The position numbers and the translations under genes were made by a program. Shown here one piece after another: positions 33,603 to 60,989 of a DNA stretch of 64,000 bases (position 1 is the stretch's first letter; each line of letters starts with the position of its first letter). The notes beneath the pieces are model-generated. The model did no database searches, was not told the DNA's origin, and was given only the letters and a program-made list of their open reading frames with translations. This DNA is from Candidatus Woesearchaeota archaeon (GTDB lineage Archaea; Nanobdellota; Nanobdellia; Woesearchaeales; JABIAG01): assembly GCA_018653365.1 (NCBI GenBank), contig JABIAG010000001.1, positions 452,951 through 516,950 on the forward strand. Direction: 5' to 3'.

Positions 33603-33624
33603 ACGCCACCGCCCGACGTCGAAC
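33603..33624. repeat. partial copy of the tRNA-Ser 3' end: candidate left attachment site
   Basis: ACGCCACCGCCC at 33603-33614 is identical and in the same orientation to the 3' end of tRNA-Ser at 60883-60894. TCGAAC also recurs after the same 4-nt gap (33619-33624 and 60899-60904), so 18 of 22 positions match. No cloverleaf can be drawn here, so it is not a working tRNA. A tyrosine recombinase gene sits next to the intact tRNA. These are the expected marks of an element inserted at a tRNA 3' end. The rest of 33556-33799 holds no gene I can support. Confidence 0.5.
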
Positions 33625-33799
33625 GTGCAGTTCATATCCGCAACTAATTCCTGCTTCTTATAACGTAACTAACCCGTAGGTGATATAAATAATCTTCCAT
33701 TTTGCGATGAGAGGTTCTAGTCAATGATTGAGCCATCTCATCATAATAAAAACAAGATTTAAATACTTTGTAGCCCTGAAAGGTACTTGAAGATTAAAT

Positions 33800-34639
33800 A
33801 TGAAAGTTATCTTAAGTAGAAAAGGGTTCGATTCAGGTTACGGTGGTTATCCTAGTTTAATTCTTCCAGATTGTAAATTGATATCGCTTCCGATTCCTTC
33901 AAAGGATTCAACAAGATATTCTGATTTAAAATTAAATAAACAACAGACATATTTTGATTTAATGAAAGAAATAAAACCCGCAATTAAATATAACAAACAA
34001 TGGCATGAATTAACAAAAGATACAGAATGTCATTTAGATCCAGATATTTATACTTCTGTTTTAGAAAGAAGTAAAGAATGGAAAGCTTGTTTTGGACAAG
34101 TTGGAGGATCACAAACGCATTTAATGAATCAAAATGTTAAAGAAGGAGATTTGTTTTTGTTTTTTGGTTGGTTTAAACAAACCCGTTTGAAAGATAAAAA
34201 ACTATGTTTTGATAAATTGGCCCATGATTTACATGTTATTTTTGGCTATTTTCAAATCGGCGAAATAATACATACTAACCAGCAGACCCAAATTTCTAAA
34301 TGGTTAAAGTCTCACCCGCATATGTTAGAAAAATATAATAACAAAAAACAAAATACTATTTATATCGCAAGAAACACATTAACCTGGAATGATAAACTGC
34401 CTGGTGCAGGTACTTTCAAATTTAATCAAGATCTAGTTTTAACTAAAAAAGGCTTTTCACGTTCAAGGTGGAAGCTATCCGATTTCTTTGAGAATGTAAA
34501 CATAAGTCATCATTCTAAAAAGTCTTGGAAACATGAAGGATACTTTCAATCTGCAGGTATCGGACAAGAATTTGTGATTGAAGACAATGTTCTAATTGAA
34601 AACTGGGCTAAAAACTTAATAAAAAACAATACAGTTTAG
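33800..34639 (+). CDS. Nmad3 (nucleotide modification associated domain 3) family protein
   Basis: The 279-residue product begins ILSRKGFDSGYGGYPSLI and continues LPIPSKDS, FGQVGGSQTHLMNQ, EGDLFLFFGWF and NTIYIARNTL. This pattern matches the Nmad3 family as I recall it, which was predicted from phage and mobile-element neighbourhoods to act in making modified nucleotides or DNA. Here it is the first gene inside the proposed element, which also carries DNA methyltransferases. No experimental activity is known to me. A TTTAAATAC box lies about 40 nt upstream. Confidence 0.7.
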   Translation: MKVILSRKGFDSGYGGYPSLILPDCKLISLPIPSKDSTRYSDLKLNKQQTYFDLMKEIKPAIKYNKQWHELTKDTECHLDPDIYTSVLERSKEWKACFGQVGGSQTHLMNQNVKEGDLFLFFGWFKQTRLKDKKLCFDKLAHDLHVIFGYFQIGEIIHTNQQTQISKWLKSHPHMLEKYNNKKQNTIYIARNTLTWNDKLPGAGTFKFNQDLVLTKKGFSRSRWKLSDFFENVNISHHSKKSWKHEGYFQSAGIGQEFVIEDNVLIENWAKNLIKNNTV

Positions 34640-34650
34640 AAATACATCGT

Positions 34651-34923
34651 TCATTTATCCTGAAGATAAAAACACTTTTCACAAAACGATTTAACATCTT
34701 TCTTTTCATAATCATCACAATGTACGGTAGCGGGCTCCCCACAATTACATGTGGGTTTTGCCGTTTTCCAAGTTTCCTCAAAGATTCTTTGACATTCTGG
34801 ATTATTACACACCATATCTTCTATATCTACATGCATAAGCTCAAACTCTTCATTAATGGGCGTAGTAACAGTTACATCGGTTTTAAACATTTTTCTACAC
34901 ACTTGACATTCTAACTTTCGCAT
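34651..34923 (-). CDS. small zinc-ribbon protein
   Basis: The 90-residue product contains nine cysteines in paired form: CQVCRK at the start, CNNPEC in the middle, then CNCGE, HCDD and FCEKCF. This suggests two zinc-binding sites. No enzyme motif is seen. It forms a pair with the next cysteine-rich gene 36 nt upstream on the same strand. Confidence 0.55.
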   Translation of the reverse strand: MRKLECQVCRKMFKTDVTVTTPINEEFELMHVDIEDMVCNNPECQRIFEETWKTAKPTCNCGEPATVHCDDYEKKDVKSFCEKCFYLQDK

Positions 34924-34959
34924 TTTTATATAAAACCCCTCATTATTACATAGAACATA

Positions 34960-35169
34960 TTATTTCACAAACCTTGTTTGGTCTAAACACTTTTTACACT
35001 TAATAATTATTTTGCCATTTTTAATAAAGGGTGTTGGATATTTTACTTTCTTACCACAATTATGGCAAATTTCCCAATTTCCAGGCATTTCTTCATACTT
35101 TTTTTCACACTCAGAACTACATAAGAACTTTTCGGTTTCTTTTCCACAAATAAAACATTTTGATTTCAT
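34960..35169 (-). CDS. small zinc-ribbon protein
   Basis: The 69-residue product has CFICGKETEKFLCSSEC at the N-terminus, a pattern like the TRASH/MYM-type zinc site, then CHNCGKK and CKKCLDQ as a second ribbon. It is basic overall and may bind DNA, RNA or a metal. It is divergent from the ribbon-helix-helix gene and upstream of another zinc-ribbon gene. Confidence 0.55.
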   Translation of the reverse strand: MKSKCFICGKETEKFLCSSECEKKYEEMPGNWEICHNCGKKVKYPTPFIKNGKIIIKCKKCLDQTRFVK

Positions 35170-35249
35170 TTTATTGATTTAATAATGTTTGACTAAATAA
35201 ATATTGTTGTATTAGAATGCCGAAAAGCTTAAATACTAGGTGCTATCAT

Positions 35250-35579
35250 ATGCTATACGTGACTGTTCAAATGAATATGCGACTATCAGAAAAACTCATT
35301 TCAGATATAGACTTTGTAGCTCAAATATTGGGCGTTACAAGAAGTGAATGGCTAAAAGTAAAATTCGCAGAATTTGTAAAAGAACAAAAAGAAATACTAT
35401 TAGAAGAACTAGAAATGAAATTCGTAAGAGAACAAATAACCGAAACCGAATTTAAGAAAAAAGCAGGATACGCTCCAACTAAAGCAATGATGTATGCACA
35501 AAAACAAATAAAACAAGCAGCACAAAACTATCTCTCCGATATGACAAACAAAGCATTAAAAAGAAAATATGGCTATTGA
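35250..35579 (+). CDS. ribbon-helix-helix-like small protein
   Basis: The 109-residue product starts with a strand and two helices (VQMNMRLSEKLISDIDFVAQILGVTRSEWLKVKF), the layout of a ribbon-helix-helix DNA-binding domain as in CopG or antitoxins. A long helical tail follows. A CTTAAATA box lies about 18-22 nt upstream; GTG or ATG codons slightly downstream are also possible starts. The next small gene begins 12 nt after its stop. It could be the regulator or antitoxin of a small module, but no toxin is recognised. Confidence 0.5.
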   Translation: MLYVTVQMNMRLSEKLISDIDFVAQILGVTRSEWLKVKFAEFVKEQKEILLEELEMKFVREQITETEFKKKAGYAPTKAMMYAQKQIKQAAQNYLSDMTNKALKRKYGY

Positions 35580-35591
35580 ATGGGATGAAAA

Positions 35592-35780
35592 ATGGAATTA
35601 AAAGATAAAGTAGCAATCATGACTGATGAGGGTATTCATAATATTGTGATGTCTGCGTGTAAGAAGTTTAATTTAAGTTTTGAAGAAGCTAATGATTTAG
35701 TGGGTGATTGGATACGTTATTCTTATGATCTAAAAAGAGCAGAAGAAGAAAAAAATAAGGGAGTTTTAAAAAGTTTTTAA
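35592..35780 (+). CDS. small hypothetical protein
   Basis: This is a 62-residue acidic helical protein with no recognised family. It begins 12 nt after the ribbon-helix-helix gene, with a GGGATGAAAA-like site before its ATG, so the two are likely co-transcribed. Confidence 0.4.
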   Translation: MELKDKVAIMTDEGIHNIVMSACKKFNLSFEEANDLVGDWIRYSYDLKRAEEEKNKGVLKSF

Positions 35781-35797
35781 TAAGAGAGGTCCTAATA

Positions 35798-35902
35798 ATT
35801 AAACTAACTAAACTAAGTAAAGAATTAGAAGCTGAAATGCCAGAAGAAATTAGAAAATTAAGAATGTTCTATTTTGAGGAAATTGAAGGAAAACTCTATT
35901 AA
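35798..35902 (+). CDS. possible 34-residue gene with a non-standard start
   Basis: An open frame follows the ribosome-site-like GAGAGGTCC, but the only codon at the right distance is ATT. It would encode about 34 mostly helical residues (IKLTKLSKELEAEMP, then a Met-Phe-Tyr-Phe run). It may be a decayed gene end or a very small gene of the upstream pair. Evidence is weak. Confidence 0.2.
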   Translation: MKLTKLSKELEAEMPEEIRKLRMFYFEEIEGKLY

Positions 35903-35924
35903 TCCTGGTTGGTTGTAGAAAGTA

Positions 35925-35932
35925 TTTTAAAT
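35925..35932 (+). promoter_or_regulatory. TATA box of the methyltransferase at 35954
   Basis: TTTTAAAT lies 22-29 nt before the ATG at 35954. It argues against a start 15 codons earlier, which would precede the box. Confidence 0.5.
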
Positions 35933-35953
35933 GTGGAGTGTTATTTATGCACG

Positions 35954-36643
35954 ATGGTTATAAAAACGGTTTCAATAAAACAAGCATATAAGCAATGGGC
36001 AGGTAAGTATGAACAAGATTTGCCTTACCTTTTTGAAAGTGAAAGTGAAAAGATAATGCCTCTACTTGGAAATGTTAAAGGAAAAAGAATTCTTGATTTA
36101 GGTTGTGGTACGGGACGATATAGCATTGCGCTTGCCAAAAAAGGCGCAATTGTAACAGCTGTTGACTTTTCTGAAGAAATGTTGTCTATGGCTAAAGATA
36201 AAGCTAAAAATGCTAAAGTTAAGATTGATTTTAAGTGTATTGATTTGAAAAAGAAATTTCCATTTAAAAAAGAAAGCTTTGATATTGTTTTATCAATGTT
36301 AGTTCTTGGACATTTCAAGAATTTAGAACCTATGATAAATAAAATTTCAAAAGTTCTTAAACTCGATGGAACATGTATGATTTCAACATTCAATCCAAAT
36401 AAAGAAGGCGGGAAAATGGCACTTGTTCAAAGTCTCGGGCTTGACGCAAGAAAGTATTCACAAACAAAAGAAGAATACATTAATGCTATAAAAAAAGCCA
36501 AACTTTCACTTGAAAAGTATTTGGAAATAAAATTCTCAAAGCAGGCGGTATTTAATGCAAAGAAAGATGGTGTAAACCTTAAACCTTACAGCCATAAACC
36601 CTTTCTAATAGCTTTTAAAATAAGAAAGAAGATTAACTTTTAA
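35954..36643 (+). CDS. class I SAM-dependent methyltransferase
   Basis: The 229-residue product has clear motif I RILDLGCGTGRYSIAL near 47, motif II IVTAVDFSEEML and a motif IV-like FDIVLSMLVLGHF. This is the layout of small-molecule or ubiquinone/menaquinone-type methyltransferases, not of DNA methylases (no NPPY or PCQ). Its 3' end overlaps the convergent MFS gene by 11 nt. The substrate is unknown. It is cargo of the proposed element. Confidence 0.8.
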   Translation: MVIKTVSIKQAYKQWAGKYEQDLPYLFESESEKIMPLLGNVKGKRILDLGCGTGRYSIALAKKGAIVTAVDFSEEMLSMAKDKAKNAKVKIDFKCIDLKKKFPFKKESFDIVLSMLVLGHFKNLEPMINKISKVLKLDGTCMISTFNPNKEGGKMALVQSLGLDARKYSQTKEEYINAIKKAKLSLEKYLEIKFSKQAVFNAKKDGVNLKPYSHKPFLIAFKIRKKINF

Positions 36644-37808
36644 CTTCAGAAGCTAATCTTACTGGAAAGAATAAACCAATAAGAATAAAGACTGCACAAC
36701 CAATAAAGACTATTGGCAAACTTATTGTAGCAAGTCCTGCTAAAGTTCCAATAATCATAATATCAAACAAGGAATCCAATCCAGAGAATAAAGACAATAC
36801 TGTTGATCTGCTCTTGGTAATATAATCATTTGCTACTTGTGTCATAATGGGGGTTCTTAACCTTCTTAGTACGAATAATGCCACAAATACGATTAAAGCT
36901 ACAATAAGAATATTTCCTAAAAATGCGGCTGCAAGAAACGCAACAAGATTTAAAATAGCAATTGAATAAATCAAAGTTTTAGTTTTAAACTTATTCTCAA
37001 ACCATTCGATTTTGTTAAGAACAAAGTAAACGAACAGATAAGATAAAGCGTAAATTAAACCAAACCACATAACCGCAACCCCCGCATTAGTTAAGAATGG
37101 TTGAGCCATTTCTCTAAAAGCCCAGAAAGGAATATAAATAAACATTTGACCAATTGCCATTAAAAAATAAGGCGATTTTCTTATGAATCTAAAACCTTCC
37201 TTAAGATGTTCATAAGGATGAATCAATCTTGAAAGTTCATGAGATTTAGGAGTTGTTAACTTAAATAATAAACCAAGCTTTACAAGACTAAAAACAATTC
37301 CTAAAACAATTACAATAATAAACTGCATTTCAGTCAAATCTTTAGCAATGTACGCCCCAAAGATAACTGCAATAGCTAAAGCAATCTGAGGAGCAGAAGT
37401 TATCTTGCCCCAAACCTTACTCATAGTATGTTTCTTTCCTATCTCTTCCAACGACTCATAAATTAAAGCATCTTTCACACCTGAATGGAAAGTAGTTGAA
37501 ATACCAACCAAAGCCGCAATCAAATAAAACATCCATTTATCAAAAGCAAAAATCAATAACACTATGGATAAAATAAATATTAATTGCGAAACGATTAAAG
37601 AAGCTTTATGGCCATATTTATCAGCAAAGGTTCCAGTAGGAACTTCAAAAATCAATGAAAAAACAACATCAATAACAAACAATATTAAAATATCCGACAA
37701 GGTCAAACCCCTATGCAAATAGAATAAAGTCAATACCGGGACTAAAAAGCTAATACTACCAAAAAACGAAGCCCAAAAATATATTTTTGGGTTATCTTTA
37801 ACCGCCAT
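36633..37808 (-). CDS. MFS transporter
   Basis: The 391-residue protein has about twelve membrane helices. The MFS loop motif after helix 2 is visible as GTFADKYGHKASLI, and the centre carries a cytoplasmic linker (TTPKSHELSRLIHPYEHLKEG). Such proteins are proton-coupled exporters or importers; the drug/metabolite efflux type is the most likely by layout. The substrate is unknown. It is convergent with the methyltransferase gene. Confidence 0.85.
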   Translation of the reverse strand: MAVKDNPKIYFWASFFGSISFLVPVLTLFYLHRGLTLSDILILFVIDVVFSLIFEVPTGTFADKYGHKASLIVSQLIFILSIVLLIFAFDKWMFYLIAALVGISTTFHSGVKDALIYESLEEIGKKHTMSKVWGKITSAPQIALAIAVIFGAYIAKDLTEMQFIIVIVLGIVFSLVKLGLLFKLTTPKSHELSRLIHPYEHLKEGFRFIRKSPYFLMAIGQMFIYIPFWAFREMAQPFLTNAGVAVMWFGLIYALSYLFVYFVLNKIEWFENKFKTKTLIYSIAILNLVAFLAAAFLGNILIVALIVFVALFVLRRLRTPIMTQVANDYITKSRSTVLSLFSGLDSLFDIMIIGTLAGLATISLPIVFIGCAVFILIGLFFPVRLASEVKS

Positions 37809-37842
37809 ACCGCTAATATTCTAATATTAAGTATTTAAATCT

Positions 37843-38001
37843 TTATCCAAAACCTCTTCTTAACAACTCTTTCTTAACACTCATTCTAATAAAAGAAGAA
37901 ACAGAAATGTTTTCTCCACATATATCTTGTATTTTTTCCCATAATTCAAGAGATATGCTTATACTTCTCGATCTAGTCCGTTTTCTAACTCTTTCAAGCA
38001 T
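37843..38001 (-). CDS. ribbon-helix-helix protein, 52 residues
   Basis: A frame from ATG 38001 to TAA 37843 encodes a very basic start (LERVRKRTRSRS), a strand SISISLELWEKI and two helices ending KKELLRRGFG. This fits the CopG/MetJ/Arc ribbon-helix-helix fold. It overlaps the end of the upstream 65-residue gene by 43 nt in another frame, so the two are translationally coupled and may form a heterodimer or a regulatory pair. Confidence 0.55.
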   Translation of the reverse strand: MLERVRKRTRSRSISISLELWEKIQDICGENISVSSFIRMSVKKELLRRGFG

Positions 38002-38156
38002 TTTAGTATCTCCTCCAATTTGGTTGTTAGTGAAGATTCCATTAAGGCCATAAAACGAATATAATCACTTTTCTTAACAAAACCAAGCTTTTCAGCTCTT
38101 AATTGGATTTCTCTTTCTTGTTCTTCAGAAAGCAATAACTCATATCTTTTCTTCAT
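37959..38156 (-). CDS. ribbon-helix-helix-like small protein
   Basis: The 65-residue product begins RYELLLSEEQEREIQLRAEKLGFVKKSDYIRFM, a strand and two helices as in ribbon-helix-helix proteins of plasmids, followed by a short helical tail. A GTTTAAATAA box sits about 25 nt before the ATG. It is the first gene of a pair with the 52-residue gene and resembles the 68-residue gene at the other end of the element in layout. Confidence 0.55.
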   Translation of the reverse strand: MKKRYELLLSEEQEREIQLRAEKLGFVKKSDYIRFMALMESSLTTKLEEILKCLKELENGLDREV

Positions 38157-38224
38157 AATAATAAGAATATCTAACTTTTATTTAAACCCCTCACGAGTGT
38201 CTTTCCCAGAGTTTCTACCCCCGT

Positions 38225-38416
38225 TTACTTTATTATGAATTTTTCAGTACTATCTGCTGGGTTTTTATCAAGAAGCATCAATAAAGCATTTCTTCCATTT
38301 AAATCAATAAGATAATAATGTAAACAATCGCCTTTTTTAATAAGTTTCCTAAAATAAGCTCTTTTGCCAATGTTAGAAAGTGGTAACTTTTCTTCTCTTG
38401 GATTCTTAATTTCCAA
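38225..38416 (-). CDS. small hypothetical protein
   Basis: The 63-residue basic protein starts at a TTG with GGGAG about 6 nt upstream and ATTTATAG further back. It has a beta-rich centre (CLHYYLIDLNGRNALLMLL). No family is recognised. It lies between VirB4 and the ribbon-helix-helix pair. Confidence 0.4.
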   Translation of the reverse strand: MEIKNPREEKLPLSNIGKRAYFRKLIKKGDCLHYYLIDLNGRNALLMLLDKNPADSTEKFIIK

Positions 38417-38611: not shown

Positions 38612-38689
38612 TTGTGCGCTTACTTGTGCGGTTTAATTTTAACAATACAGAAGCTCAGGGCCAATAATTCGCTACTTTGTGCGGTTTAA
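38612..38689. repeat. short direct repeats around the end of the VirB4 gene
   Basis: TTGTGCGGTTTAA occurs exactly at 38624-38636 and 38677-38689, and a shorter relative TTGTGCGCTTA at 38612-38622. The third copy covers the last codons of the VirB4 gene. A 7-bp hairpin around 38464-38483 lies in the same gap. Such repeats may bind a plasmid-type replication or partition protein, or mark recombination. No gene other than the small one above is seen in 38417-38671. Confidence 0.4.
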
Positions 38690-41689
38690 ATTGCTATTAA
38701 TAACAGAGTTTTTTTGACCGCTAAATTGTAACTGCACAAATTCCTTTATTTCATGACGCAATAACATTTTTAGACCGTGCTTGGCAAAACTGTTTTTGAT
38801 TCTATTTCCTGTTAATATAATATAAGCACGCTTCCCATAATCTCTTACTATATTCTCAAACTTTTCTTTTTTGTTCTTTCTATTTTCTCTTAAACATATG
38901 CCGGTTTCAACTTCTAAACCTATCTTTTGTCCTAATTTATTCTTAAAAACAACATCGGGTTTCTTAGTCTGATAACATTTAACCTCTTTTGTATACTTTC
39001 TTATCTCTTCTGCAATTATTGCAACTAAAAAAGTATGTTCAGCAGATTCAGGATGATTAGGCTTAACATAATAAGGAAAAGGACCGGATTCAAGATTATG
39101 ACACTTCATAAGCACATAATTGTGATTATTCAACATATTAATTTGTAAAGGAGTTAAACCTTTAGCTCCATGAAATGGCTTGTTAATGTCAATATTAGCT
39201 TTTTCATCTTCCTTATCATCCTTTACTTTAGGCAGTTTAGCCTCACCTAAGCTTATAAGCTCATTAGGATTGGTGGTTATTAGTTTATGCTCCTCTTCAC
39301 TCGCAACTACCTTTAATTCTTGATGATCATTATCCATAATTAAAACACCATCTCCGGGCATGGCAGATAACAAATAATCTTGTTCTGGCTGACTTAAATT
39401 AAATGTTGTTGCTACACTTCTTATTACCGCTGGTTTTTGTCTTAGAAGAAAAGTATAAGAAGTATTAGAAAGAACAGCATGACCTGCCTTTGAAGCAACT
39501 AAATCAGCAACATCCTGAGTAATCATCAACAACCCCAAATTATGCTTTCTACACGTCTTAACAATTTCAAAAATATAACTTGATTCTTTAGCAGTCTGCA
39601 ATAAAGACCAAGCTTCATCAATAACAAAAACCTTCTTTCTATTTGTACCTTTCATCTTCATATAAACATAATCAAGAACTAAATACATAACAACGGGTTT
39701 GACCTGTTTAGGCATGTTACCAATATTAAAACACAAAAAATTATTATCAAAGTTAATTCTGGTTTTTCTATCAAGAAAACCAAAAACACCCCGTTCAGTG
39801 TACATCTGCAAACGATTAAGTAATGCTCGATAAGTTACTTTTTCCTGCTGAACAGAAGCCTTTTCTAACTTACTTAAAGTTAAAAAAAGATCAGACATTA
39901 TTGGTGGTTCATGACTATTATAATCATCTCTTGTTATCCCACAGTTCTCATAAGTTAAGTCAATAGCTCTATCAAGAATAGACTTTTGTAATTCATTAAG
40001 GTCCTTAAACATTATTTGAAATAAATCCATCAAACTAAGCCTTTTTTCAAGATACTCATGCCCCATAAGATCCAACGGATTAATAATAGTTTCAGAATCC
40101 TTAGAAATAGTTATACACTCACCACCATAATGCTGTGTAATAGCCAAATACTCCCCCTGAGGATCAATAATTATGATATCTGTTCCATTCATAAACTGTC
40201 TTGCAATAAGAAGCTTAGTAAAATAACTCTTACCACCTCCCGATGTTGAAAGAACAAGACCATTAGCATTAGCTAAGTTGAAGATGTTTTTAATTAATGG
40301 AATGCCATTCTTATTTAACCCTAATAAAATGCCATCATTATCAATATTTAAAAAAGGACTTGAAAAAGGAAAAAAAGCAGCTAATCCTTTTGTGTGAATA
40401 TTTCTTGTAAGTTTTAAAGCATTATTAGCTAAAGGAAGCATACTAGTATAACTCTCCATCATCTGAAACAAAGGAGGCTTATTCTGAATCATCAAAGAAT
40501 CTAACTCAGCTTTAACCTTTTTAGAAAGCAAATCAATCTCTTCCTTATCTCTGCCCTTACACATAACATATAAAGAAACATCAAAAAGCTTCTGCTGACC
40601 CTTTTGTAAATCTGTTAAAATTTCCTTTGTAGCTTTGAACTTAATATCCAAACTTGGATTAAGAATACCTTTTTGAGAATCAACATACAAATCAGCTTGT
40701 TGCTTTTGCAAATCCCTATTTAACTGAATCATCATCATGTCAATTGGATACGGTTGAATATGAATACTAATATCATATTTATCCCCCGAACCAATAATTC
40801 TGTCTAAAAAACCTTTTTCAACAGAACTAGGATAACCAAAAACTGCGATGAGTTTACAAAATAAGTTATCAATAGCAAAATGATCTGGGAAGAATTTAAC
40901 TTCATTAGGAGAAAACAAGAAATGGGCAACTTCCTTAATCTCTTTTTCAACCTTCTTATCTTTCATAACAGCAAACAACTTAATAAGAGAATTATCAGTT
41001 AATCTCTTTACTTTTAAACCAATATTAGAAAGCTTCTCAGCACAAACATCAGCTTGTACCTCAATATTATCTTTTTCCCTTATTATTATGTAAAAATTCC
41101 TATTCTGAACACCATTAACTTCAATAGACCTTTCTATAAACTGCTTATATGATTCAAATAACGAGTTTGATCTTTCAGTATTTGCAAGCTTGCCAATATG
41201 TTCAAAATGATCTTTCAAAGAAATAGGATTAGTAGTAATATGGATTTGGATAGGAAAATCTAAACTGTTTAAAAACTTCTGAAATCCAATAAGAATAGCT
41301 TCCTTCTCATCATCGGTCTTAAGCATAAAATTCATAGGAATAACTTCCAAAATAGCAAGCTTGCTCTTAGACTGAATTATAGTATTATTTCGTATAGCTT
41401 TAATATCAACTATGCTCTGAAGAATCTGACTTAAAACACTTACTTTAGGATTCTTCTTATAATTATAAAAGTTTTTAAGCTTATTTTTCCCATCAAAAAA
41501 CATAAAAAAAGCAGCAGTACAAAGAATAAATAAAATAATCGTGCTTGTCACTTCCACAGACAAACCAGACTTAAAAGCAATAATAAAACAGATTAAGAAT
41601 GTGGGTAGAGCATAAACAAGTTGAGAGAAGGTTAAACCAAACAAAATCTTCTCCTTATGCTGAAGCGGAGGAGGGATGTCGTAAGCCAT
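38672..41689 (-). CDS. virB4: VirB4-family secretion ATPase fused to a PrgI/VirB3-like N-terminus and a nuclease-like C-terminus
   Basis: The 1005-residue protein has three parts. Residues 1-90 resemble PrgI/VirB3: DIPPPLQHKEKILFGLTF, then two membrane helices. Residues about 100-830 are a VirB4/TraC-type ATPase with Walker A STSGGGKSYF near 480, Walker B VFVIDEAW near 690 and DVADLVASKAG after it. Residues about 850-1005 show a possible PD-(D/E)xK core: KPDVVF near 910, then LEVETG near 925 followed by a Lys/Arg-rich helix. VirB4 ATPases power type IV secretion and conjugation. The nuclease-like tail is unusual. Upstream on the same strand are a lipoprotein, SNase and CxxC gene. Confidence 0.85.
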   Translation of the reverse strand: MAYDIPPPLQHKEKILFGLTFSQLVYALPTFLICFIIAFKSGLSVEVTSTIILFILCTAAFFMFFDGKNKLKNFYNYKKNPKVSVLSQILQSIVDIKAIRNNTIIQSKSKLAILEVIPMNFMLKTDDEKEAILIGFQKFLNSLDFPIQIHITTNPISLKDHFEHIGKLANTERSNSLFESYKQFIERSIEVNGVQNRNFYIIIREKDNIEVQADVCAEKLSNIGLKVKRLTDNSLIKLFAVMKDKKVEKEIKEVAHFLFSPNEVKFFPDHFAIDNLFCKLIAVFGYPSSVEKGFLDRIIGSGDKYDISIHIQPYPIDMMMIQLNRDLQKQQADLYVDSQKGILNPSLDIKFKATKEILTDLQKGQQKLFDVSLYVMCKGRDKEEIDLLSKKVKAELDSLMIQNKPPLFQMMESYTSMLPLANNALKLTRNIHTKGLAAFFPFSSPFLNIDNDGILLGLNKNGIPLIKNIFNLANANGLVLSTSGGGKSYFTKLLIARQFMNGTDIIIIDPQGEYLAITQHYGGECITISKDSETIINPLDLMGHEYLEKRLSLMDLFQIMFKDLNELQKSILDRAIDLTYENCGITRDDYNSHEPPIMSDLFLTLSKLEKASVQQEKVTYRALLNRLQMYTERGVFGFLDRKTRINFDNNFLCFNIGNMPKQVKPVVMYLVLDYVYMKMKGTNRKKVFVIDEAWSLLQTAKESSYIFEIVKTCRKHNLGLLMITQDVADLVASKAGHAVLSNTSYTFLLRQKPAVIRSVATTFNLSQPEQDYLLSAMPGDGVLIMDNDHQELKVVASEEEHKLITTNPNELISLGEAKLPKVKDDKEDEKANIDINKPFHGAKGLTPLQINMLNNHNYVLMKCHNLESGPFPYYVKPNHPESAEHTFLVAIIAEEIRKYTKEVKCYQTKKPDVVFKNKLGQKIGLEVETGICLRENRKNKKEKFENIVRDYGKRAYIILTGNRIKNSFAKHGLKMLLRHEIKEFVQLQFSGQKNSVINSNLNRTK

Positions 41690-41742
41690 AAAATAAAACT
41701 GATTAAATTATATAATAAGGGGTTTAATAGAAATTACGTGAT

Positions 41743-42716: not shown

Positions 42717-42728
42717 TTTAGACCTCCG

Positions 42729-42905: not shown

Positions 42906-43010
42906 TTTTTATCACCTTAAACAAAATTAATTTTAAGACATAATTAGTTTTCTGAAGTTATTGGCGAATATTTGTATCAATTGCGAGTATTATTACCAAA
43001 TAATAATAAA

Positions 43011-51385: not shown

Positions 51386-51603
51386 CTTGATTGGCCTTTA
51401 ATTGTTTTTTTCATATAAATTTTAAATTGTTTATAATTTAATATTGTGTGTGTTTTCAAATTTTATTCATAATTAACCATTTTGTGACCTGTGATGAATA
51501 TTAATCCTTGAGATTTATAAATATTTACTGTTTTTAGCGTTTCGTTCTTCTTCCGTAGTTTTTGTTAAACTGCTATAAATAAAACCATAATATTTCTTAA
51601 TTC

Positions 51604-54745: not shown

Positions 54746-54747
54746 AC

Positions 54748-56793
54748 ATGAAAAAAGCACTATTTGTTTTACTTTTAATAATAATCCCTTTAGCTAACGC
54801 TTTTGAATGTGAAACAACAACAGATAAAAATTATTGTGAAATTATACAAAGTTCTTCTTTAAGCGAAGTTGATAAAGACTCTTTTTATTCTGCTTTGCTT
54901 TATACCAATCATTCAGAACCAGATCATCGTTTTATAGAAGATTATAACCTTAATGTTATAGTTAATGATTCTCCTTTCGATGCTGAAGTTAAAAGCTCCA
55001 AATATATAAAGAATGCTTGGGTTTCTATATTTAGTGTTTTTCCTTCTGTTTATGAAAACACAACATTATATGTTCCAAACAAAATTAACGTATTAAGTAG
55101 TTATGATTATGAAATTGATTTACCAAATGATTATAGTGGTTCTTACCCTGATACAAGTAATGGAGATTGTGCAAGAACATATGACCTTGTAAAGAACGAA
55201 TACAGGTTTAAACAATCATTTAATGACGAACTTAAAAGTTCAAACAAACTAATAGAAGTTGACGTTAATATAGACGGCCAATTAAAAGCAGAGCTATCAA
55301 TAGAAACAGAAGTAAAGATAAGTCAGTATCACTGGAAAAGATACTGTTGTGTAAGAGGAAAAGACGGTTGTAAAGAATACTGCCACAAATGCGACCAGTA
55401 CAAAACAAGTTATGAAACAGATAATGTTGAAGTAGAAGAAACAAAAGATATAACTTTATACATCAAAGATCCAAGTATAAAAATAAACTTTCTTGATTCT
55501 TATTACAATACAACAAAAGGTAATTTTACAGCTTCAGATTATACAAGCTTTATTATTAACTTTCCAAAATCATATGTTAAAAACAATTTGTACCGTTACG
55601 AAGTCATTTTTGAAAAAAAGCCACTATACTTTGCATATTTAAAAGCAAAAGAAATTAACCAAACAACACATAAAAACCTTTATCTCTCAGATAACACATT
55701 CTTTGTAAATAACGCAAGTTATTGTAATTATGTTATACAAGATTATTTTTCTAAAACTGAAGGTTTTGTTAATGTAGAAGTTGAAAGACAAGAATTAAAA
55801 AAATTAGAAACCGAAGAAAGAAACTTCAAGATTGCATTGCTCTTTAAGATTTTAATTCTTATTGGTATTTGTTACGTTGTTTATGTTATACTTCGTTCCA
55901 AATTCAAAAAAGTTGGAATATTTGTTTTATTAATTCTAATTTGTTTGCCAACAGTATTAGCAGAAGAAGAATGCGGATTAACAAACCTAGCATCATGCAT
56001 CCCAGAAAAAATGTATGAATACTTCATTCACATACTCAATTTGCCATTAGCACCCCTTCTAGGGACCGTTTCTTCATTACTTACAGCAAACCCCTCAACA
56101 AACATCTTTTATCATCTGTGGGCAATTATGAGATATATTATAAGCTTCTTTTACGTATTCATCTTTATTTATGCAGGATACATTTTCTTAACTTCAAACG
56201 CAAACCCCATAAAAAGAGCACAAGCAAAAGAACTATTAAAAAACACATTCATAATGATTGTACTGATCCAAGGATCTTTTTACTTATATGATTTAATATT
56301 ATATTTAAGTAGTGTTATGAACAGTACAATAATCGGGATGATAGATCCTCACTTTTTCATGCTTACAGCGGATAATCTATTAAATATTGGTTTGGAACTT
56401 GTATTCTCGGGAACTTATCTAATTGTGTTACTTTTCACAGTCATCTTATTGACCCTTCGCTTCATGCTAGTAAGCTTTGGAGTAGTACTCTTGCCCTTAA
56501 GCATATTTTGTTACTTCCTACCACCACTAAAACAATATGGAAAGTTTTTGCTGCACTTATTGGGTAGCTTCATATTCGTAACATTCTTAGACCTCTTGAT
56601 AATTTTAGGATGCTCAATGCTAATCAATGTTCCACTATTTGAAAACTTCAAAATAGTAGTAATGATAGTATGCTTCATCCTCGTTGATTACACATTAATA
56701 TTACTAATAAAATTTGCAATGAACGGAGCAAGTAACAACCCCATTAAAGAAGACCTTGGTCAGGCTATGAAATACGTGGCGTTGTTGGTTTGA
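54748..56793 (+). CDS. VirB6/TrbL-like membrane protein with an internal signal-peptide-like segment
   Basis: The 681-residue protein has an N-terminal signal peptide, an extracellular domain of about 340 residues with a cysteine cluster (YCCVRGKDGCKEYCHKCDQ near 200), and a membrane helix near 370. A second signal-like segment (GIFVLLILICLPTVLAEE) lies near 388-405. The last 270 residues then have about six helices, as in VirB6/TrbL channel proteins. It looks like two proteins fused end to end, and signal peptidase could separate them. It follows the VirB2-like gene, as in type IV secretion operons. Confidence 0.7.
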   Translation: MKKALFVLLLIIIPLANAFECETTTDKNYCEIIQSSSLSEVDKDSFYSALLYTNHSEPDHRFIEDYNLNVIVNDSPFDAEVKSSKYIKNAWVSIFSVFPSVYENTTLYVPNKINVLSSYDYEIDLPNDYSGSYPDTSNGDCARTYDLVKNEYRFKQSFNDELKSSNKLIEVDVNIDGQLKAELSIETEVKISQYHWKRYCCVRGKDGCKEYCHKCDQYKTSYETDNVEVEETKDITLYIKDPSIKINFLDSYYNTTKGNFTASDYTSFIINFPKSYVKNNLYRYEVIFEKKPLYFAYLKAKEINQTTHKNLYLSDNTFFVNNASYCNYVIQDYFSKTEGFVNVEVERQELKKLETEERNFKIALLFKILILIGICYVVYVILRSKFKKVGIFVLLILICLPTVLAEEECGLTNLASCIPEKMYEYFIHILNLPLAPLLGTVSSLLTANPSTNIFYHLWAIMRYIISFFYVFIFIYAGYIFLTSNANPIKRAQAKELLKNTFIMIVLIQGSFYLYDLILYLSSVMNSTIIGMIDPHFFMLTADNLLNIGLELVFSGTYLIVLLFTVILLTLRFMLVSFGVVLLPLSIFCYFLPPLKQYGKFLLHLLGSFIFVTFLDLLIILGCSMLINVPLFENFKIVVMIVCFILVDYTLILLIKFAMNGASNNPIKEDLGQAMKYVALLV

Positions 56794-56847
56794 TTATATT
56801 TGTTAGTTCTTGAATAAACATTAGTGTTATTTTAATTAAACATAAAG

Positions 56848-56854: not shown

Positions 56855-56876
56855 GGCTATGTTGGATTCTGTTATT

Positions 56877-57275
56877 ATGTTAAATTTCATAAATGAACTG
56901 ATTATTAATAATGTAGATACTTTTGCAGTTATGTGCACAACATTATTTCTTATTATAATCGGAACGCCTCTGATTTCTTTCAAAGGGGGCATTCCCCGGA
57001 TTGCTGGAGTTATAATTAGAAAAGGAAAATCAATCGCAGTAGCAGTCCTGTTAGCAATCATTATTTTTTTTGTAATTGCTCCTCTTTTAAATCTATTATT
57101 TAGATCTCTGATAAAGGCTTTTGTTGATTTTACAATACCTGTATTGATTGTTTTTGCAGGTCTAACTTTATGGGAGTGGGATAAAAAGATGCGATGGGAT
57201 TATAAATGGTATTGGATCCCAGTTCTATTGGTAGGTATTTTGTTTGTTATCCTTGAGATATTTTTAATAAATTAA
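56877..57275 (+). CDS. four-helix membrane protein
   Basis: The 132-residue product has about four membrane helices with a basic loop (GGIPRIAGVIIRKGKS) and a C-terminal WEWDKKMRWDYKWYW region rich in tryptophan. No family is recognised. It has its own TATA box and lies after the VirB6-like gene, so it is in the element but possibly separate from that operon. Confidence 0.55.
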   Translation: MLNFINELIINNVDTFAVMCTTLFLIIIGTPLISFKGGIPRIAGVIIRKGKSIAVAVLLAIIIFFVIAPLLNLLFRSLIKAFVDFTIPVLIVFAGLTLWEWDKKMRWDYKWYWIPVLLVGILFVILEIFLIN

Positions 57276-57406: not shown

Positions 57407-57431
57407 GTCCACATTGAATATCTTGATTATT

Positions 57432-59243
57432 GTGAAGAGACCGCTTAATCATGTTAAAGAAACAGAATCTTTTGCCTATGTGGAAGATACTTTAAAAGAA
57501 TGGGTGCCCAACAGATTAAATAATGATTATGGGATAGACTATGATATTCAAATATTTGAAAAAGAAGAAGGAACAGAATTAAATTTTGGAGCTCAAATAA
57601 AATCAACAGAATCATCAAATGTTGATAAAGAACACTACAAATATAGTTTAGATACAGAACACATTGACTATTTCTTCAAACAAAATAGGCCCATACTCTT
57701 AATAGTATATGATATTCCTAGTAAAAATGCTTTCTGGGTAGTAATGCAAGATTATGTATGGGATGTCCTAAATAAAGAAAATCCTAATTGGTTAAATCAG
57801 AGATCATCAACAATCAAACTACCGCTTAGGAATCTGTTAACAGATAAGAAAGCAATCAAAATAGCTGTAAAGTCCTGTTTTAAACGAATCGCAGTAAAAA
57901 ACTTCCATAATTTATCAATAGAAGATGGGTTGGGGCTAAATGAAACTTTAGAAGACATTGAAAAACTTAAAGCATTTGAAGAAAAAACTGAATATGTTCT
58001 AAACAATAAAAAAATACTCCTAGCACAAAAACTAGCAATTACTGGTGATTATGAGACTGTATTCAAAAAATTAAATGAAGTTTACTCACAACAAAAAAAT
58101 GATATTGCACATTTAAGAGCAATTATTGCACTTGTAACATATAGTAATATTGCAATAGAAGAAGAAAACAAGAAATTAGTTCAATTAGCAGACGAAGGTC
58201 TAAAAATAGCAGAACTGCTTGATGAGAAAATCGGGTTTGCAATACTATTAGTCTATCGAGCACAAGCATTACACTTAACGCTCACAAGAAGAATAACAGA
58301 AAGTCTATATGCAAAAAAAGCAATGGGGCACATGGATATTGCATATATTATAAACTTAGAATCAGATAAAAAGATAAAAGAATTAAATGAAGCACTCACT
58401 AAAGTAAGCCTTGAAGTAAGGGAAGCATTTAAAATCTTAATACAATCGCAAGATTACTTTACTCTCGCATATCTATTAACAATTAATTTACATATGACTA
58501 CGATGACAATACAGCAGATAAGTGTGATTGTAGGGAAGGATAAATTCATAGATGAAATAAAACAAAAGGATATTCTAGCACAACATCTGATTAATTTGAT
58601 AAAGGTATTCAATGACGAAACGCTTGAAATAAATATTAGAGAATCTGTAGCAAATTATTATTATTATACAAGGGGTGCAGAAGATGCACTAATAGTAATA
58701 GAACCTGCTTTAAAGATAGCAGAAAAATTAAAAGACCAACCACAATTCAAAAAGATTAAAATGATGATTAATACTTTCAAAGCCAGACCCGATCCATATC
58801 AGGTAGAAGATAGAAAATTTGAAGAACTTTCGATAAAAGAAGTAAAAGAACTAACTATAAAGCATATAGAGTTAATGGGAGAAAATCTAAGTGATGGTTC
58901 AGACAATAGTAGTGCATTAAACTGGGGATTAAAAGATATGGATCCTGAACCCTATCTTAAGACTTGCGAAGAGCTTCATATTCATTATTCAAGCACAAGT
59001 TACTTAGGACAAATGACTGGAGTTCATTCAATAGGATTTAAATTATTGTGGTGCAAACAGGGCCAGGTAACTGTTGATCAACACTTAAATAGCGCATTTG
59101 AAATTCACAAAGAAAAGTACTGTAAAGATTGTACACATAAAAAACCAAGATCAAAGGATTGGACCTGTAAATGGGGATGGTTCTGGAAGAGAGAAATACC
59201 CAAGCCTATGCAAGACTTCAAAGAAAATATGAAGAAATGGTAA
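57432..59243 (+). CDS. DUF4365 nuclease-like protein with a helical-repeat region
   Basis: The 603-residue product begins with a DUF4365-type domain: NNDYGIDYDIQIFE, then FGAQIKST, a D...QxK core related to PD-(D/E)xK nucleases. Residues about 160-460 are helical and resemble TPR-like repeats. The C-terminus has HxxC-type residues (HKEKYCKDCTHKK and WTCKWGW) that may bind zinc. DUF4365 proteins occur in defence islands and mobile elements, so an anti-phage or anti-plasmid role is plausible. The GTG start is chosen from TATA spacing. Confidence 0.65.
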   Translation: MKRPLNHVKETESFAYVEDTLKEWVPNRLNNDYGIDYDIQIFEKEEGTELNFGAQIKSTESSNVDKEHYKYSLDTEHIDYFFKQNRPILLIVYDIPSKNAFWVVMQDYVWDVLNKENPNWLNQRSSTIKLPLRNLLTDKKAIKIAVKSCFKRIAVKNFHNLSIEDGLGLNETLEDIEKLKAFEEKTEYVLNNKKILLAQKLAITGDYETVFKKLNEVYSQQKNDIAHLRAIIALVTYSNIAIEEENKKLVQLADEGLKIAELLDEKIGFAILLVYRAQALHLTLTRRITESLYAKKAMGHMDIAYIINLESDKKIKELNEALTKVSLEVREAFKILIQSQDYFTLAYLLTINLHMTTMTIQQISVIVGKDKFIDEIKQKDILAQHLINLIKVFNDETLEINIRESVANYYYYTRGAEDALIVIEPALKIAEKLKDQPQFKKIKMMINTFKARPDPYQVEDRKFEELSIKEVKELTIKHIELMGENLSDGSDNSSALNWGLKDMDPEPYLKTCEELHIHYSSTSYLGQMTGVHSIGFKLLWCKQGQVTVDQHLNSAFEIHKEKYCKDCTHKKPRSKDWTCKWGWFWKREIPKPMQDFKENMKKW

Positions 59244-59375: not shown

Positions 59376-59582
59376 ATGCCTAAAAATCACACCATTAGAT
59401 TTAGAATAACAAAAGATCAACATGAACAGATTAAGTATTTAGCTAATAAAAACGGATTCTCATATGTTTCTGATTTTGTGAGAACTGTGCTTTTTTCAAA
59501 GAATGAACTAATAGAATCTAAAATTATTGAAACTAATAAAATAGTGAAAAAATTATTAGAGGTTAACAATGGAAGATTCTGA
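59376..59582 (+). CDS. ribbon-helix-helix protein (CopG/MobC-like)
   Basis: The 68-residue product begins NHTIRFRITKDQHEQIKYLANKNGFSYVSDFVRTVLF, a strand-helix-helix layout typical of plasmid CopG and MobC-type proteins, with a short coiled tail. A small gene overlaps its end. It lies next to the recombinase and may regulate it or act in DNA mobilisation. Confidence 0.6.
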   Translation: MPKNHTIRFRITKDQHEQIKYLANKNGFSYVSDFVRTVLFSKNELIESKIIETNKIVKKLLEVNNGRF

Positions 59583-59652
59583 AGACATACCCGAATGGAT
59601 CAAAATATTAAAAAAAATGGAGCAAAAAATAGAACTAGAAAACTCCCTTTAA
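59569..59652 (+). CDS. possible 27-residue gene next to the recombinase
   Basis: A short frame from ATG 59569 overlaps the end of the ribbon-helix-helix gene and has GAGGTT 6 nt upstream. It encodes an acidic helix (SEDIPEWIKILKKMEQKIE). It also overlaps the recombinase stop region on the other strand. A coupled small partner is possible; evidence is modest. Confidence 0.3.
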   Translation: MEDSEDIPEWIKILKKMEQKIELENSL

Positions 59653-60807
59653 CTCTTTTAACCTTTCAAAAAACAATTCTTTTATCTTAGGATCTTCTAA
59701 CATTTTAGCCATCATATCATCAGCATGCTTTCTCTCAGTATCCATTTCCATAGCATACTTAAGATCCAATATTCCACCACACTTATTACAATGCTTAGAA
59801 TCATAACTGTTTATAGTATCACACCTTGGACACACTCTCGGCCTTTCCTGAACTAATTCTTTATCAGATTCGACCTCAATCCCATTCATCTTAAGAATAG
59901 CGCTATCAACAGCCTTTCCACTCATATGAACATAAGTTGAAGGCATTTTACTCCCCTGAATCCAACCAAAATACTGATTCATCTGAAACTCCGTCAAATG
60001 ATTAGCCATAAAAGTAGCACGCGAATGCCTAAACAAATGAGGATTACTCCTCTTCTTCATACCTGCTTTTTTAAATAAGTCTCTTAACATCTTACACATG
60101 GCAGGATAAACCATCCCCTGGTTCTGCCTTCGATTCCCAAAATTAATCCAAACTGGAGCAGAAGGATCATCTTTAGCAGGGTGTACGTTCAACCAAGTAG
60201 AAAGATGAGGAGTGCTGGCAATTAAACGAATCTTTCTTGACCCAGTCTTTCCACTAATAGACAAAACCAGCCCATGCTTATCAAAGACCACATTTTTAAT
60301 ACAAATATTTCCTAACTCACTTATTCTTGCACCACTCTCCCATAACATAGAAACCAAAGCCTTATTTCTTGGATGATCCGCAAGTTTAATTAACTTTTGA
60401 ACCTCTTCTTCAATTAATAAATCTCCTTCCGAAGGTAACTTTTGTTCAGACCTACTAATTCTTATGTTAATCCAATCTACTAATTCAGGACGTTCAAACC
60501 AAACATAAAACCTTCTCAACATTACTTTGTAAGTTTGTTTGGTCCAACCCGAATAAGTCTGTTGCTGAATCCCACTAACAAGCTCTTTTATGTCATCTTT
60601 TGAAACCTTATCAAAATCTTTGTTAAGTCTTTTTGCAAGAAGTTTTAATTTATTCAAATAATTAATTAATCTGGGTTTAGAAAGACTCTCTAATACCAAA
60701 TCTCCATGAAACTTTAGTATTAATTCCTTGTTGCTAGCAGAAAGATCTCCATCCTTAATTGCATTTATTGCTGCTTCATATTTTTTGTCATAACCATGTA
60801 TGTCCAT
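59635..60807 (-). CDS. tyrosine recombinase/integrase with a C-terminal zinc ribbon
   Basis: The 390-residue protein has a SAM-like core-binding domain (about 1-130) and a catalytic domain with the Arg in ESGARISELG (about 156), HLFRHSRA (about 258), and Tyr in PSTYVHMSG (about 288). A zinc ribbon CPRC...HCNKCGG (about 325-340) and a helical tail follow; this ribbon is seen in archaeal XerA-like integrases. It catalyses strand exchange between attachment sites. The gene stands 77 nt from the 3' end of tRNA-Ser, the classic position for the integrase of a tRNA-integrating element. The start is fixed by GAGGT before the ATG and a TTTTTAAAA box. Confidence 0.88.
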   Translation of the reverse strand: MDIHGYDKKYEAAINAIKDGDLSASNKELILKFHGDLVLESLSKPRLINYLNKLKLLAKRLNKDFDKVSKDDIKELVSGIQQQTYSGWTKQTYKVMLRRFYVWFERPELVDWINIRISRSEQKLPSEGDLLIEEEVQKLIKLADHPRNKALVSMLWESGARISELGNICIKNVVFDKHGLVLSISGKTGSRKIRLIASTPHLSTWLNVHPAKDDPSAPVWINFGNRRQNQGMVYPAMCKMLRDLFKKAGMKKRSNPHLFRHSRATFMANHLTEFQMNQYFGWIQGSKMPSTYVHMSGKAVDSAILKMNGIEVESDKELVQERPRVCPRCDTINSYDSKHCNKCGGILDLKYAMEMDTERKHADDMMAKMLEDPKIKELFFERLKELKGVF

Positions 60808-60846
60808 TTTATTACCTCTAGAAGCAGTTTTTAAAAAGTTTGTAGC

Positions 60847-60864
60847 CCGCAAAGGGGCTTGCGG
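60847..60864. repeat. GC-rich inverted repeat between integrase and tRNA-Ser
   Basis: CCGCAA and TTGCGG flank a 6-nt loop. An alternative hairpin GCCC/GGGC overlaps it. It is the only GC-rich patch in this gap and may be an integrase arm-binding site or a transcription stop. The flanking GATTCCAACTG also resembles the tRNA T-arm at 60896-60906 (10 of 11). Confidence 0.4.
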
Positions 60865-60883
60865 ATTCCAACTGTGAGTTTTA

Positions 60884-60989
60884 CGCCACCGCCCAGATTC
60901 GAACTGGGATATCCTTGCGGAAACTGGCTAACTTGATTAGTAATGATAACACTCAAGGCCAGCGCAATACCAGGTTATGCGACGGTGGC
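60884..60989 (-). tRNA. tRNA-Ser (anticodon UGA) with a 22-nt intron; probable integration site
   Basis: On the minus strand acceptor GCCACCG pairs with CGGTGGC, with discriminator G as in serine tRNAs. The D arm is GCA/TGC with GG in its loop. The anticodon stem CTGGC/GCCAG holds C-U-UGA-G-A. A variable arm with TCC/GGA marks type II, and the T arm is CCCAG/CTGGG around TTCGAAT. An intron splits the loop after position 37. The recombinase gene starts 77 nt from its 3' end, and part of that end recurs at 33603. Confidence 0.9.
60930..60951 (-). other. tRNA-Ser intron at the 37/38 site
   Basis: Loop bases CTTG (32-35) pair perfectly with CAAG near the intron 3' end, leaving 3-nt bulges AGT and TTA around the cut sites: a bulge-helix-bulge motif. 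The inner part is a single-stranded loop of 15 nt. Confidence 0.75.

What the first reader, a model, noticed from the sequence alone, without database searches (positions are those of the whole stretch)
33603..60989. About 27-kb integrated element between a tRNA-Ser 3' fragment and tRNA-Ser plus integrase
A tyrosine recombinase gene lies 77 nt from the 3' end of tRNA-Ser(UGA). 27 kb to the left, a 12-bp exact copy of that tRNA 3' end (18 of 22 over a longer stretch) occurs in the same orientation. Everything between is of accessory type: Nmad3, ribbon-helix-helix and zinc-ribbon small proteins, VirB4, VirB2/VirB6-like proteins, type I restriction-modification, C5 methyltransferase, DUF4365. 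Housekeeping genes resume outside on the right. Few integrative elements with a type IV-like apparatus are described for DPANN-like archaea. Observed: repeats and genes. Inferred: that they form one element.
Basis: partly seen in the sequence, partly recalled or inferred. Interest (0 to 1): 0.88.

Follow-up and report, generated by a model that had tools for sequence, protein, structure and literature searches.

The report
Woesearchaeal tRNA-integrated conjugation-like element
A 27-kb piece of mobile DNA sits at a serine tRNA gene of a tiny woesearchaeal archaeon; it carries its own integrase and a small DNA-transfer machine whose motor is fused to a nuclease-like domain, and it belongs to a family spread through this archaeal group that seems not to have been described.

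Summary
ACGCCACCGCCC occurs only at 33603 and 60883, in the same orientation (0.00 expected); an 11-nt core occurs twice in the whole 1.09-Mb genome. tRNA-Ser(UGA), with a 22-nt intron, is at c60883-60990. The same test on 15 other elements with related integrases gives 12 tRNA-3'-end copies of 11-19 bp, all on the same strand. In three order-level relatives TFB and tRNA-Ser(UGA) lie beside homologs of window genes 20064-22642, which here are 38 kb away: an interrupted ancestral site.

It is an ICE-like element. VirB2-VirB6-VirB4 recurs in related DPANN loci, wholly inside tRNA att repeats in several. In the window the operon looks split by a ~15-kb inversion.

No relaxase or VirD4-type coupling protein was found. 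Instead VirB4 carries a C-terminal wHTH plus PD-(D/E)xK-like domain (H885, D912, E926, E928, K943 invariant in 43/43; AF2 pLDDT 92.5). Among 4656 bacterial plasmid matches none covers 80% of the query. The domain also occurs separately, 14 of 19 beside integrases.

Integration is well supported; transfer and the nuclease's role are inferred.

The parts
33603..33614 (+). distal att copy (12 bp of the tRNA-Ser 3' end), left boundary
60883..60894 (+). proximal att copy, the 3' terminus of tRNA-Ser (gene on - strand)
60883..60990 (-). tRNA-Ser(UGA) with 22-nt intron, integration target
   Evidence: ARAGORN with introns allowed
59635..60852 (-). tyrosine recombinase (integrase), intact, with C-terminal zinc ribbon
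   Evidence: Phage_integrase E 4e-14; R176, K202, W297, Y307 invariant in 29/29, H272 25/29, R275 28/29, zinc-ribbon cysteines 28/29
59376..59582 (+). NikA-like ribbon-helix-helix protein; relaxosome accessory or excision factor (inferred)
   Evidence: PF21983 30.5 bits, cut-off 27; homologs in several related elements
38672..41689 (-). VirB4 ATPase: N-terminal PrgI (VirB3-like), P-loop_TraG motor, C-terminal wHTH + PD-(D/E)xK-like domain (residues about 838-1005)
54425..54745 (+). VirB2-like pilin
   Evidence: T4SS_pilin PF18895 E 7e-11; alignment A4
54748..56793 (+). VirB6-like channel: beta-rich N-terminal half fused to membrane C-terminal half
   Evidence: weak T4SS_pilin; Foldseek to TrwI/VirB6 8rt9 and 8rtd prob 1.00
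56859..57275 (+). membrane protein, 138 aa, downstream of virB6
   Evidence: no family
52664..54428 (+). three ORFs (100, 149, 339 aa) upstream of virB2; two have hydrophobic segments (read from sequence); the 339-aa one has no homolog in the other 144 genomes searched
51604..52674 (+). C5 cytosine DNA methyltransferase, just upstream of the virB2-virB6 block; also beside virB2 in the closest related elements
   Evidence: PF00145 E 2e-75
45909..51385 (-). type I restriction-modification hsdM, hsdS, hsdR
44143..45582 (-). DUF2779 / Cas4-like / RNase H-like nuclease protein
   Evidence: PF11074 E 7e-44
45589..45912 (-). Trypco2-like small protein
   Evidence: sub-threshold PF19631
42961..44146 (+). 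251-aa wHTH-like protein plus SocA/Panacea-like (toxin-antitoxin-type) protein
   Evidence: sub-threshold SocA_Panacea; PADLOC PDC-M19A E 2e-13
41743..42716 (-). putative lipoprotein (236 aa) and staphylococcal-nuclease-like ORF (94 aa)
   Evidence: PF00565 E 3.5e-5
57414..59243 (+). DUF4365 protein, candidate defence
   Evidence: PF14280 E 1e-21; PADLOC
33800..34639 (+). Nmad3 nucleotide-modification-associated protein
   Evidence: PF18754 E 1e-71
34651..38416 (.). accessory block: two zinc-ribbon small proteins, two small ORFs, SAM methyltransferase, MFS transporter, RHH protein, small ORF
41690..56800 (.). inferred internal inversion: re-inverting this stretch restores the canonical virB2-virB6-virB4 order on one strand
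   Evidence: canonical order in related loci; no exact inverted repeat longer than 16 nt in the element

Best explanation
An integrative, conjugation-like element of a woesearchaeal (DPANN) archaeon. Its tyrosine integrase recombines a short core (about 12 bp) in the circular element with the 3' end of tRNA-Ser(UGA), so the tRNA stays intact and a 12-bp copy marks the far end. The element encodes a minimal MPF_FATA-like transfer apparatus: VirB2 pilin, VirB6 channel and VirB4 motor with a fused VirB3-like segment. Proposed transfer: the excised circle is processed and pumped to a neighbouring cell. No relaxase or VirD4-type coupling protein was found, so the nuclease-like domain fused to VirB4, perhaps guided by the NikA-like RHH protein, is the likeliest DNA-processing step. 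Cargo is mostly restriction-modification and candidate defence genes. Shown: att repeats, target use by the integrase family, interrupted ancestral synteny, T4SS genes inside att-bounded segments, conserved fusion. Inferred: excision, transfer, nuclease activity and role.
For: Att repeat unique in window and genome. Related integrases sit at the 3' end of many different tRNAs; 13 of 16 integrase-tRNA loci, including this one, have an 11-19 bp same-strand copy of the tRNA 3' terminus 5-27 kb away, none on the opposite strand. Interrupted site: TFB / tRNA-Ser(UGA) / AMP-phosphorylase-like / AI-2E-transporter neighbourhood compact in three relatives. Integrase catalytic residues conserved. VirB2/VirB6 cluster members beside VirB4 in 46 of 54 loci, sporadic in 23 of 145 genomes counting this one, fully inside att repeats in G038, G041 and G111 and in part in G013. 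VirB6 fold. VirB4 C-terminal domain. Separate versions beside integrases. No relaxase PF03432 in 145 genomes; no VirD4-family match in this genome, and in the order only one substantial match, in a genome without a VirB4 match.
Against: No reads, no circular junction, no same-family genome with an exactly empty site; the relatives are order-level. In this copy the virB operon is broken by an inferred inversion, so it may be transfer-defective. Foldseek scores for the VirB4 C-terminal domain are modest (best E 2e-3, TM-scores about 0.3-0.4), and the canonical ExK lysine is replaced by ExE with a conserved lysine further on, so catalysis is unproven. Two of the 16 integrase-tRNA loci (G026:C27, G099:C26) show no att copy although 26-34 kb was available. 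The VirB4 matches to MPF_FATA-type NCBIfam models are below their curated cut-offs. Patescibacterial T4SSs of related type also lack relaxases and have been interpreted as non-conjugative (PMC12102498).
Confidence: 0.75

Rival explanations
1. An integrated element whose T4SS has been co-opted for symbiont-host contact or protein secretion, as proposed for Patescibacteria, rather than for moving its own DNA.
For: DPANN archaea are typically symbionts (general knowledge); no relaxase or coupling protein; published Patescibacteria interpretation (PMC12102498).
Against: Patescibacterial VirB4 was reported in 2,417 of 3,035 assemblies (PMC12102498), whereas here it is sporadic (23 of 145) and lies inside integrase-tRNA-att segments. 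A nuclease-like domain on the motor suggests a DNA substrate.
Confidence: 0.15
2. A decayed, immobile remnant: real past integration, but the internal inversion and cargo insertion have ended transfer in this copy.
For: VirB4 separated from VirB2-VirB6 by about 13 kb on the opposite strand, unlike nearly all related loci.
Against: Integrase, VirB4, VirB6 and VirB2 are all open and conserved at active-site positions; both att copies are intact.
Confidence: 0.25
3. The fused nuclease-like domain is not for donor processing but acts on incoming DNA or excludes competing elements (entry exclusion or defence at the membrane).
For: Many separate versions have N-terminal hydrophobic segments (read from sequence) and the cargo is rich in restriction genes; weak Pfam similarity to CoiA nuclease.
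Against: The fusion is present in all 43 long VirB4 sequences aligned, and 14 of 19 separate versions sit next to integrases, pointing to a core element function.
Confidence: 0.25
4. The two repeats are coincidental and the region is just a chromosomal accessory island.
For: Only 12 bp; base composition hardly differs from the flanks.
Against:: unique in the genome, ends at the tRNA 3' end, same pattern in 12 other elements, interrupted synteny.
Confidence: 0.02

Closest known systems
Putative integrative-conjugative elements of Thaumarchaeota (PMC6563490)
   Same: Archaeal integrated elements with conjugation genes, no relaxase detected; R-M S subunits, zinc-ribbon and CopG/RHH proteins are among the common cargo of thaumarchaeal integrated elements.
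   Different: Other host phylum; the passages read here do not mention a VirB4-nuclease fusion (full text not read). Here VirB2-VirB6-VirB4 is a compact, conserved operon in related loci.
Ced and Ted DNA-transfer systems of Crenarchaeota (PMC9905601)
   Same: Reduced T4SS of three parts: VirB2-, VirB6- and VirB4-like; no relaxase; HerA-NurA proposed to make the single strand.
   Different: Described as domesticated derivatives of the T4SS, whereas this one is on an integrative element; here a nuclease-like domain is fused to VirB4.
MPF_FATA T4SS and ICEs of Firmicutes and Mollicutes (Mbov_0397, CD1110 families)
   Same: Best NCBIfam matches of VirB4 and of the pilin-like parts; PrgI component.
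   Different: Scores below the curated cut-offs; PrgI is part of the VirB4 polypeptide here; no relaxase, no coupling protein; bacterial plasmid VirB4 matches do not cover the C-terminal domain.
T4SS of Patescibacteria (PMC12102498)
   Same: VirB4/PrgI/VirB6/VirB2 set, relaxase mostly absent, small-genome organisms.
   Different: Reported in most assemblies rather than sporadic; no integrase-tRNA-att context is mentioned in the passages read, and the word nuclease does not occur in the text.
tRNA-targeting archaeal tyrosine integrases (unsplit, pNOB8-type; from general knowledge)
   Same: Full-length integrase beside the intact tRNA, att formed by the tRNA 3' end.
   Different: Divergent family with a conserved C-terminal zinc ribbon and use of many different tRNAs.
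NucS/EndoMS, Hjc and other PD-(D/E)xK nucleases
   Same: Fold of the VirB4 C-terminal domain; invariant D912, E926, E928.
   Different: Fused to a VirB4 motor with a preceding wHTH; ExE plus a later lysine instead of ExK.

Membership tests
Integrative element at a tRNA gene | att direct repeats, one being the tRNA 3' end, with an integrase next to it | tested here: met
Integrative element at a tRNA gene | uninterrupted ancestral site in relatives | tested here: met
   at order level and by synteny only; an exact empty site in a close relative could not be tested
Integrative element at a tRNA gene | excision to a circle | not testable with these tools
   no reads
ICE (bacterial definition) | VirB4 plus mating-pore proteins | tested here: met
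ICE (bacterial definition) | relaxase (MOB) | tested here: not met
   none by Pfam among the main ORFs of this element (HsdM typed with PADLOC) or in ten ORFs of a related complete element; PF03432 in 0 of 145 genomes; other MOB families not searched genome-wide
ICE (bacterial definition) | VirD4/TcpA coupling protein | tested here: not met
   PF02534: no match in this genome; TcpA not searched separately
ICE (bacterial definition) | self-transfer | not testable with these tools
   needs co-culture
MPF_FATA T4SS class | VirB4 assigned to the class by profile | tested here: inconclusive
   best two models are of that type but below cut-off
MPF_FATA T4SS class | PrgI (VirB3-like) component | tested here: met
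   PF12666 27.1 bits, cut-off 27, at the N terminus of VirB4
VirB6 family | VirB6 fold | tested here: met
   TrwI 8rt9_F and 8rtd_L prob 1.00, TM (target) 0.52-0.53; model confidence only moderate (pLDDT 71.8)
PD-(D/E)xK nuclease superfamily (VirB4 C-terminal domain) | core fold and conserved acidic residues | tested here: inconclusive
   fold hits dominated by PD-(D/E)xK nucleases at modest scores; D912, E926, E928 invariant
PD-(D/E)xK nuclease superfamily (VirB4 C-terminal domain) | catalytic activity | not testable with these tools
   needs biochemistry
Replication-relaxation family (PF13814) | Pfam match of the C-terminal domain | tested here: not met
   not among the Pfam families listed for A2 and no match in this genome
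SSV-type split integrase | integrase gene cut by the att site | tested here: not met
   gene intact, att lies in the tRNA

The most novel reading that the evidence does not exclude
In these DPANN elements a nuclease domain fused to the VirB4 motor replaces the relaxase and coupling protein, so that one polypeptide cuts the element's DNA and feeds it to the channel; smaller integrative elements without a T4SS carry the same nuclease as a separate, often membrane-anchored protein beside their integrase, as a ticket to be mobilised by the complete elements. This would supply a missing DNA-processing enzyme of archaeal conjugation.
Probability: 0.3. Interest if true: 0.87.

Novelty: new variant of a known kind. 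Interest (0 to 1): 0.7.

Why it matters
How archaeal conjugative elements prepare DNA for transfer without any recognisable relaxase is an open question (PMC9905601, PMC6563490). A widespread DPANN element family in which the VirB4 motor carries a conserved nuclease-like domain, also found as a separate protein beside integrases, gives a concrete candidate that can be tested in vitro. It also suggests that tiny-genome archaea have their own integrative transfer elements that carry restriction and defence genes.

Tried and rejected
Default ARAGORN and Rfam miss tRNA-Ser because of its intron. No relatives in viral contigs. Replic_Relax (PF13814) considered for the VirB4 C-terminal domain and not supported. 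Searched for inverted repeats at the inferred inversion breakpoints: none longer than 16 nt in the element. The longer 18/22 repeat similarity: judged incidental, since other family members match only over 11-19 bp. VirB2 profile against solved structures gave no pilin. An integrase profile built from the closest homologs failed to find more divergent integrases; Pfam did. Low-probability Foldseek hits of the VirB6 N-terminal half to viral envelope proteins were disregarded (prob about 0.2). A first attempt to list integrase residues timed out and was rerun.
Full report
Observation. The 12-bp repeat ACGCCACCGCCC lies at 33603 and 60883 in the same orientation. With up to one mismatch there is no other match in the window and the shuffle expectation is 0.00; the 11-nt core occurs exactly twice in the 1.09-Mb genome, which lies in three contigs. 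ARAGORN with introns allowed finds tRNA-Ser(UGA) at c60883-60990 with a 22-nt intron; the default search and Rfam miss it. The repeat is exactly the 3' end of this tRNA. The integrase at 59635-60852 (-) reads away from the tRNA and is intact.

Is it more than chance? I searched the integrase in 145 genomes, all but the window's own at order level: 67 have homologs. Of the 30 best loci most lie at the 3' end of a tRNA, and of many kinds: Ser, Thr, Glu, Arg, Gly, Cys, Met, Gln, Leu, Tyr, Phe (some of these intron-containing calls may be misnamed). For 16 integrase-tRNA loci I looked for a further copy of the tRNA 3' terminus on the element side. Thirteen, including this one, have an exact copy of 11-19 bp around the tRNA end, 5-27 kb away; none has one on the opposite strand, and simulated sequence reached the observed length in 0 or 1 of 200 trials in each of those. 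Of the three without a copy, one is cut off by a contig end. So a 12-bp repeat is what this integrase family normally leaves.

Interrupted site. In relatives G066 and G044 TFB and tRNA-Ser(UGA) have the same divergent arrangement as in the window, and just beyond the tRNA 3' end come homologs of window genes 21149-22642 (an AMP/pyrimidine-nucleoside-phosphorylase-like protein, 50-57% identity) and 20064-21152 (AI-2E family transporter), in the same order and orientation; in G142 the same neighbours are present but the tRNA is inverted. In the window these genes are 38 kb from the tRNA. The att-bounded 27.3 kb accounts for most of that; a further 11 kb (22.6-33.6 kb) of other genes lies outside the left att copy. 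This is an empty-site test by synteny at order level, not an exact empty site.

Gene content. Pfam, NCBIfam and PADLOC give VirB4 (38672-41689), T4SS pilin (54425-54745), a VirB6-like protein (54748-56793), NikA-like RHH proteins, type I R-M, C5 methyltransferase, Nmad3, DUF2779, SocA-like and DUF4365 proteins. The VirB6 assignment rests on an AlphaFold model of moderate confidence (pLDDT 71.8) that matches TrwI/VirB6 of the R388 T4SS with probability 1.00.

The family. A scan of 84,980 species genomes with a VirB4 alignment finds 53 loci. All but one come from records titled as Woesearchaeota, Pacearchaeota, Nanoarchaeota (or Nanoarchaeia, Nanoarchaeum) or unnamed archaea; the exception is titled as a bacterium and is probably mis-binned. 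In most, virB2, virB6 (one gene or two) and virB4 follow one another on one strand; virB2/virB6 cluster members occur in 46 of 54 loci counting the window. Presence is sporadic: 23 of 145 genomes. In G038, G041 and G111 the integrase and the whole T4SS lie between the tRNA and its att copy; in G013 the integrase, VirB2 and VirB6 do, without a VirB4 match. In the window VirB4 is 13 kb from VirB6 and on the opposite strand; re-inverting 41.7-56.8 kb would restore the usual order, so I infer an internal inversion. No flanking repeats mark it. This copy may therefore be damaged.

DNA processing. Beyond the motor, VirB4 ends in about 170 residues present in all 43 long sequences aligned, with H885, D912, F915, E926, E928, G930 and K943 invariant. 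AlphaFold gives pLDDT 92.5: a winged-helix-like start followed by an alpha-beta-beta-beta-alpha-beta core. The best Foldseek matches are NucS/EndoMS, with Can2/Card1, Hjc, Cas4-like and other PD-(D/E)xK nucleases below them, at modest scores (best E 2e-3, TM about 0.3-0.4); Pfam gives only weak CoiA-nuclease similarity. I therefore call it nuclease-like. None of 4656 plasmid records with a VirB4 match covers 80% of the query, and the best-listed matches stop at or before residue 829. A profile search of 371 genomes of the phylum finds the domain in 50, also as separate proteins. Of 19 such loci read in detail 14 have a tyrosine integrase within 1.7 kb, 13 of them within 500 bp; many of these proteins begin with hydrophobic segments, and one of the 19 is a truncated VirB4. 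No relaxase PF03432 occurs in 145 genomes, VirD4-type PF02534 has no match in this genome, and a complete 16.7-kb related element shows no relaxase in ten ORFs scanned. I did not search every relaxase family genome-wide. NurA is widespread in the order and present, weakly scoring, in this genome, so the HerA-NurA route proposed for Ced/Ted (PMC9905601) is also open to it.

Mechanism. Shown: target, repeats, interrupted neighbourhood, T4SS inside att-bounded segments, conserved fusion. Inferred: excision, export of the element, and that the fused domain prepares the DNA. The main rivals are a T4SS used for host contact, as argued for Patescibacteria (PMC12102498), a decayed copy, and a nuclease acting on incoming DNA. 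The sporadic, integrase-linked distribution favours a transfer function for the element itself.

Comparison and novelty. It works like an ICE, but two defining features of bacterial ICEs (relaxase, coupling protein) were tested and not found, so I do not file it as a canonical ICE; thaumarchaeal putative ICEs are described with the same absence of relaxases (PMC6563490). I found no paper describing such elements in DPANN archaea in the held open-access library; subscription papers and preprints were not searched. Rating: new variant of a known kind, interest 0.7.

Noticed in passing
window 32951-33555: A TerC/cadmium-transporter-like gene just left of the att copy is split into two overlapping frames, its N-terminal half matching one part of the TerC profile and its C-terminal half the next: a frameshift or assembly error.
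   Followed up: partly
window 22673-26782: Three consecutive ORFs (700, 250, 422 aa) without Pfam match, in the stretch with the highest GC and GC skew in the window; they lie in the extra 11 kb not seen at the tRNA-Ser site of relatives.
   Followed up: no
L202, L207, L208, L210, L212, L216, L217: Recurrent three-gene locus: a small integrase of about 170-200 aa next to or overlapping the separate nuclease-like gene, with a convergent integrase-like gene on the other side that may be XerA.
   Followed up: partly
G111:C15 132732-134930; G071:C4 128003-129432; G001:C22 54462-54552: Several spaced copies of the same tRNA 3' end beyond the integrase: possible att arrays or stacked insertions.
   Followed up: no
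L140: A record titled Cloacimonadota bacterium carries the archaeal T4SS operon with 50% identical VirB4: probably a mis-binned contig.
   Followed up: no
L161:12933-14042: An ORF that reads like a reverse transcriptase lies beside VirB4 in an element with a 15-bp att copy; not tested.
   Followed up: no
window 19922-20005: tRNA-Arg(UCG) with an 11-nt intron, missed by the default tRNA search.
   Followed up: no
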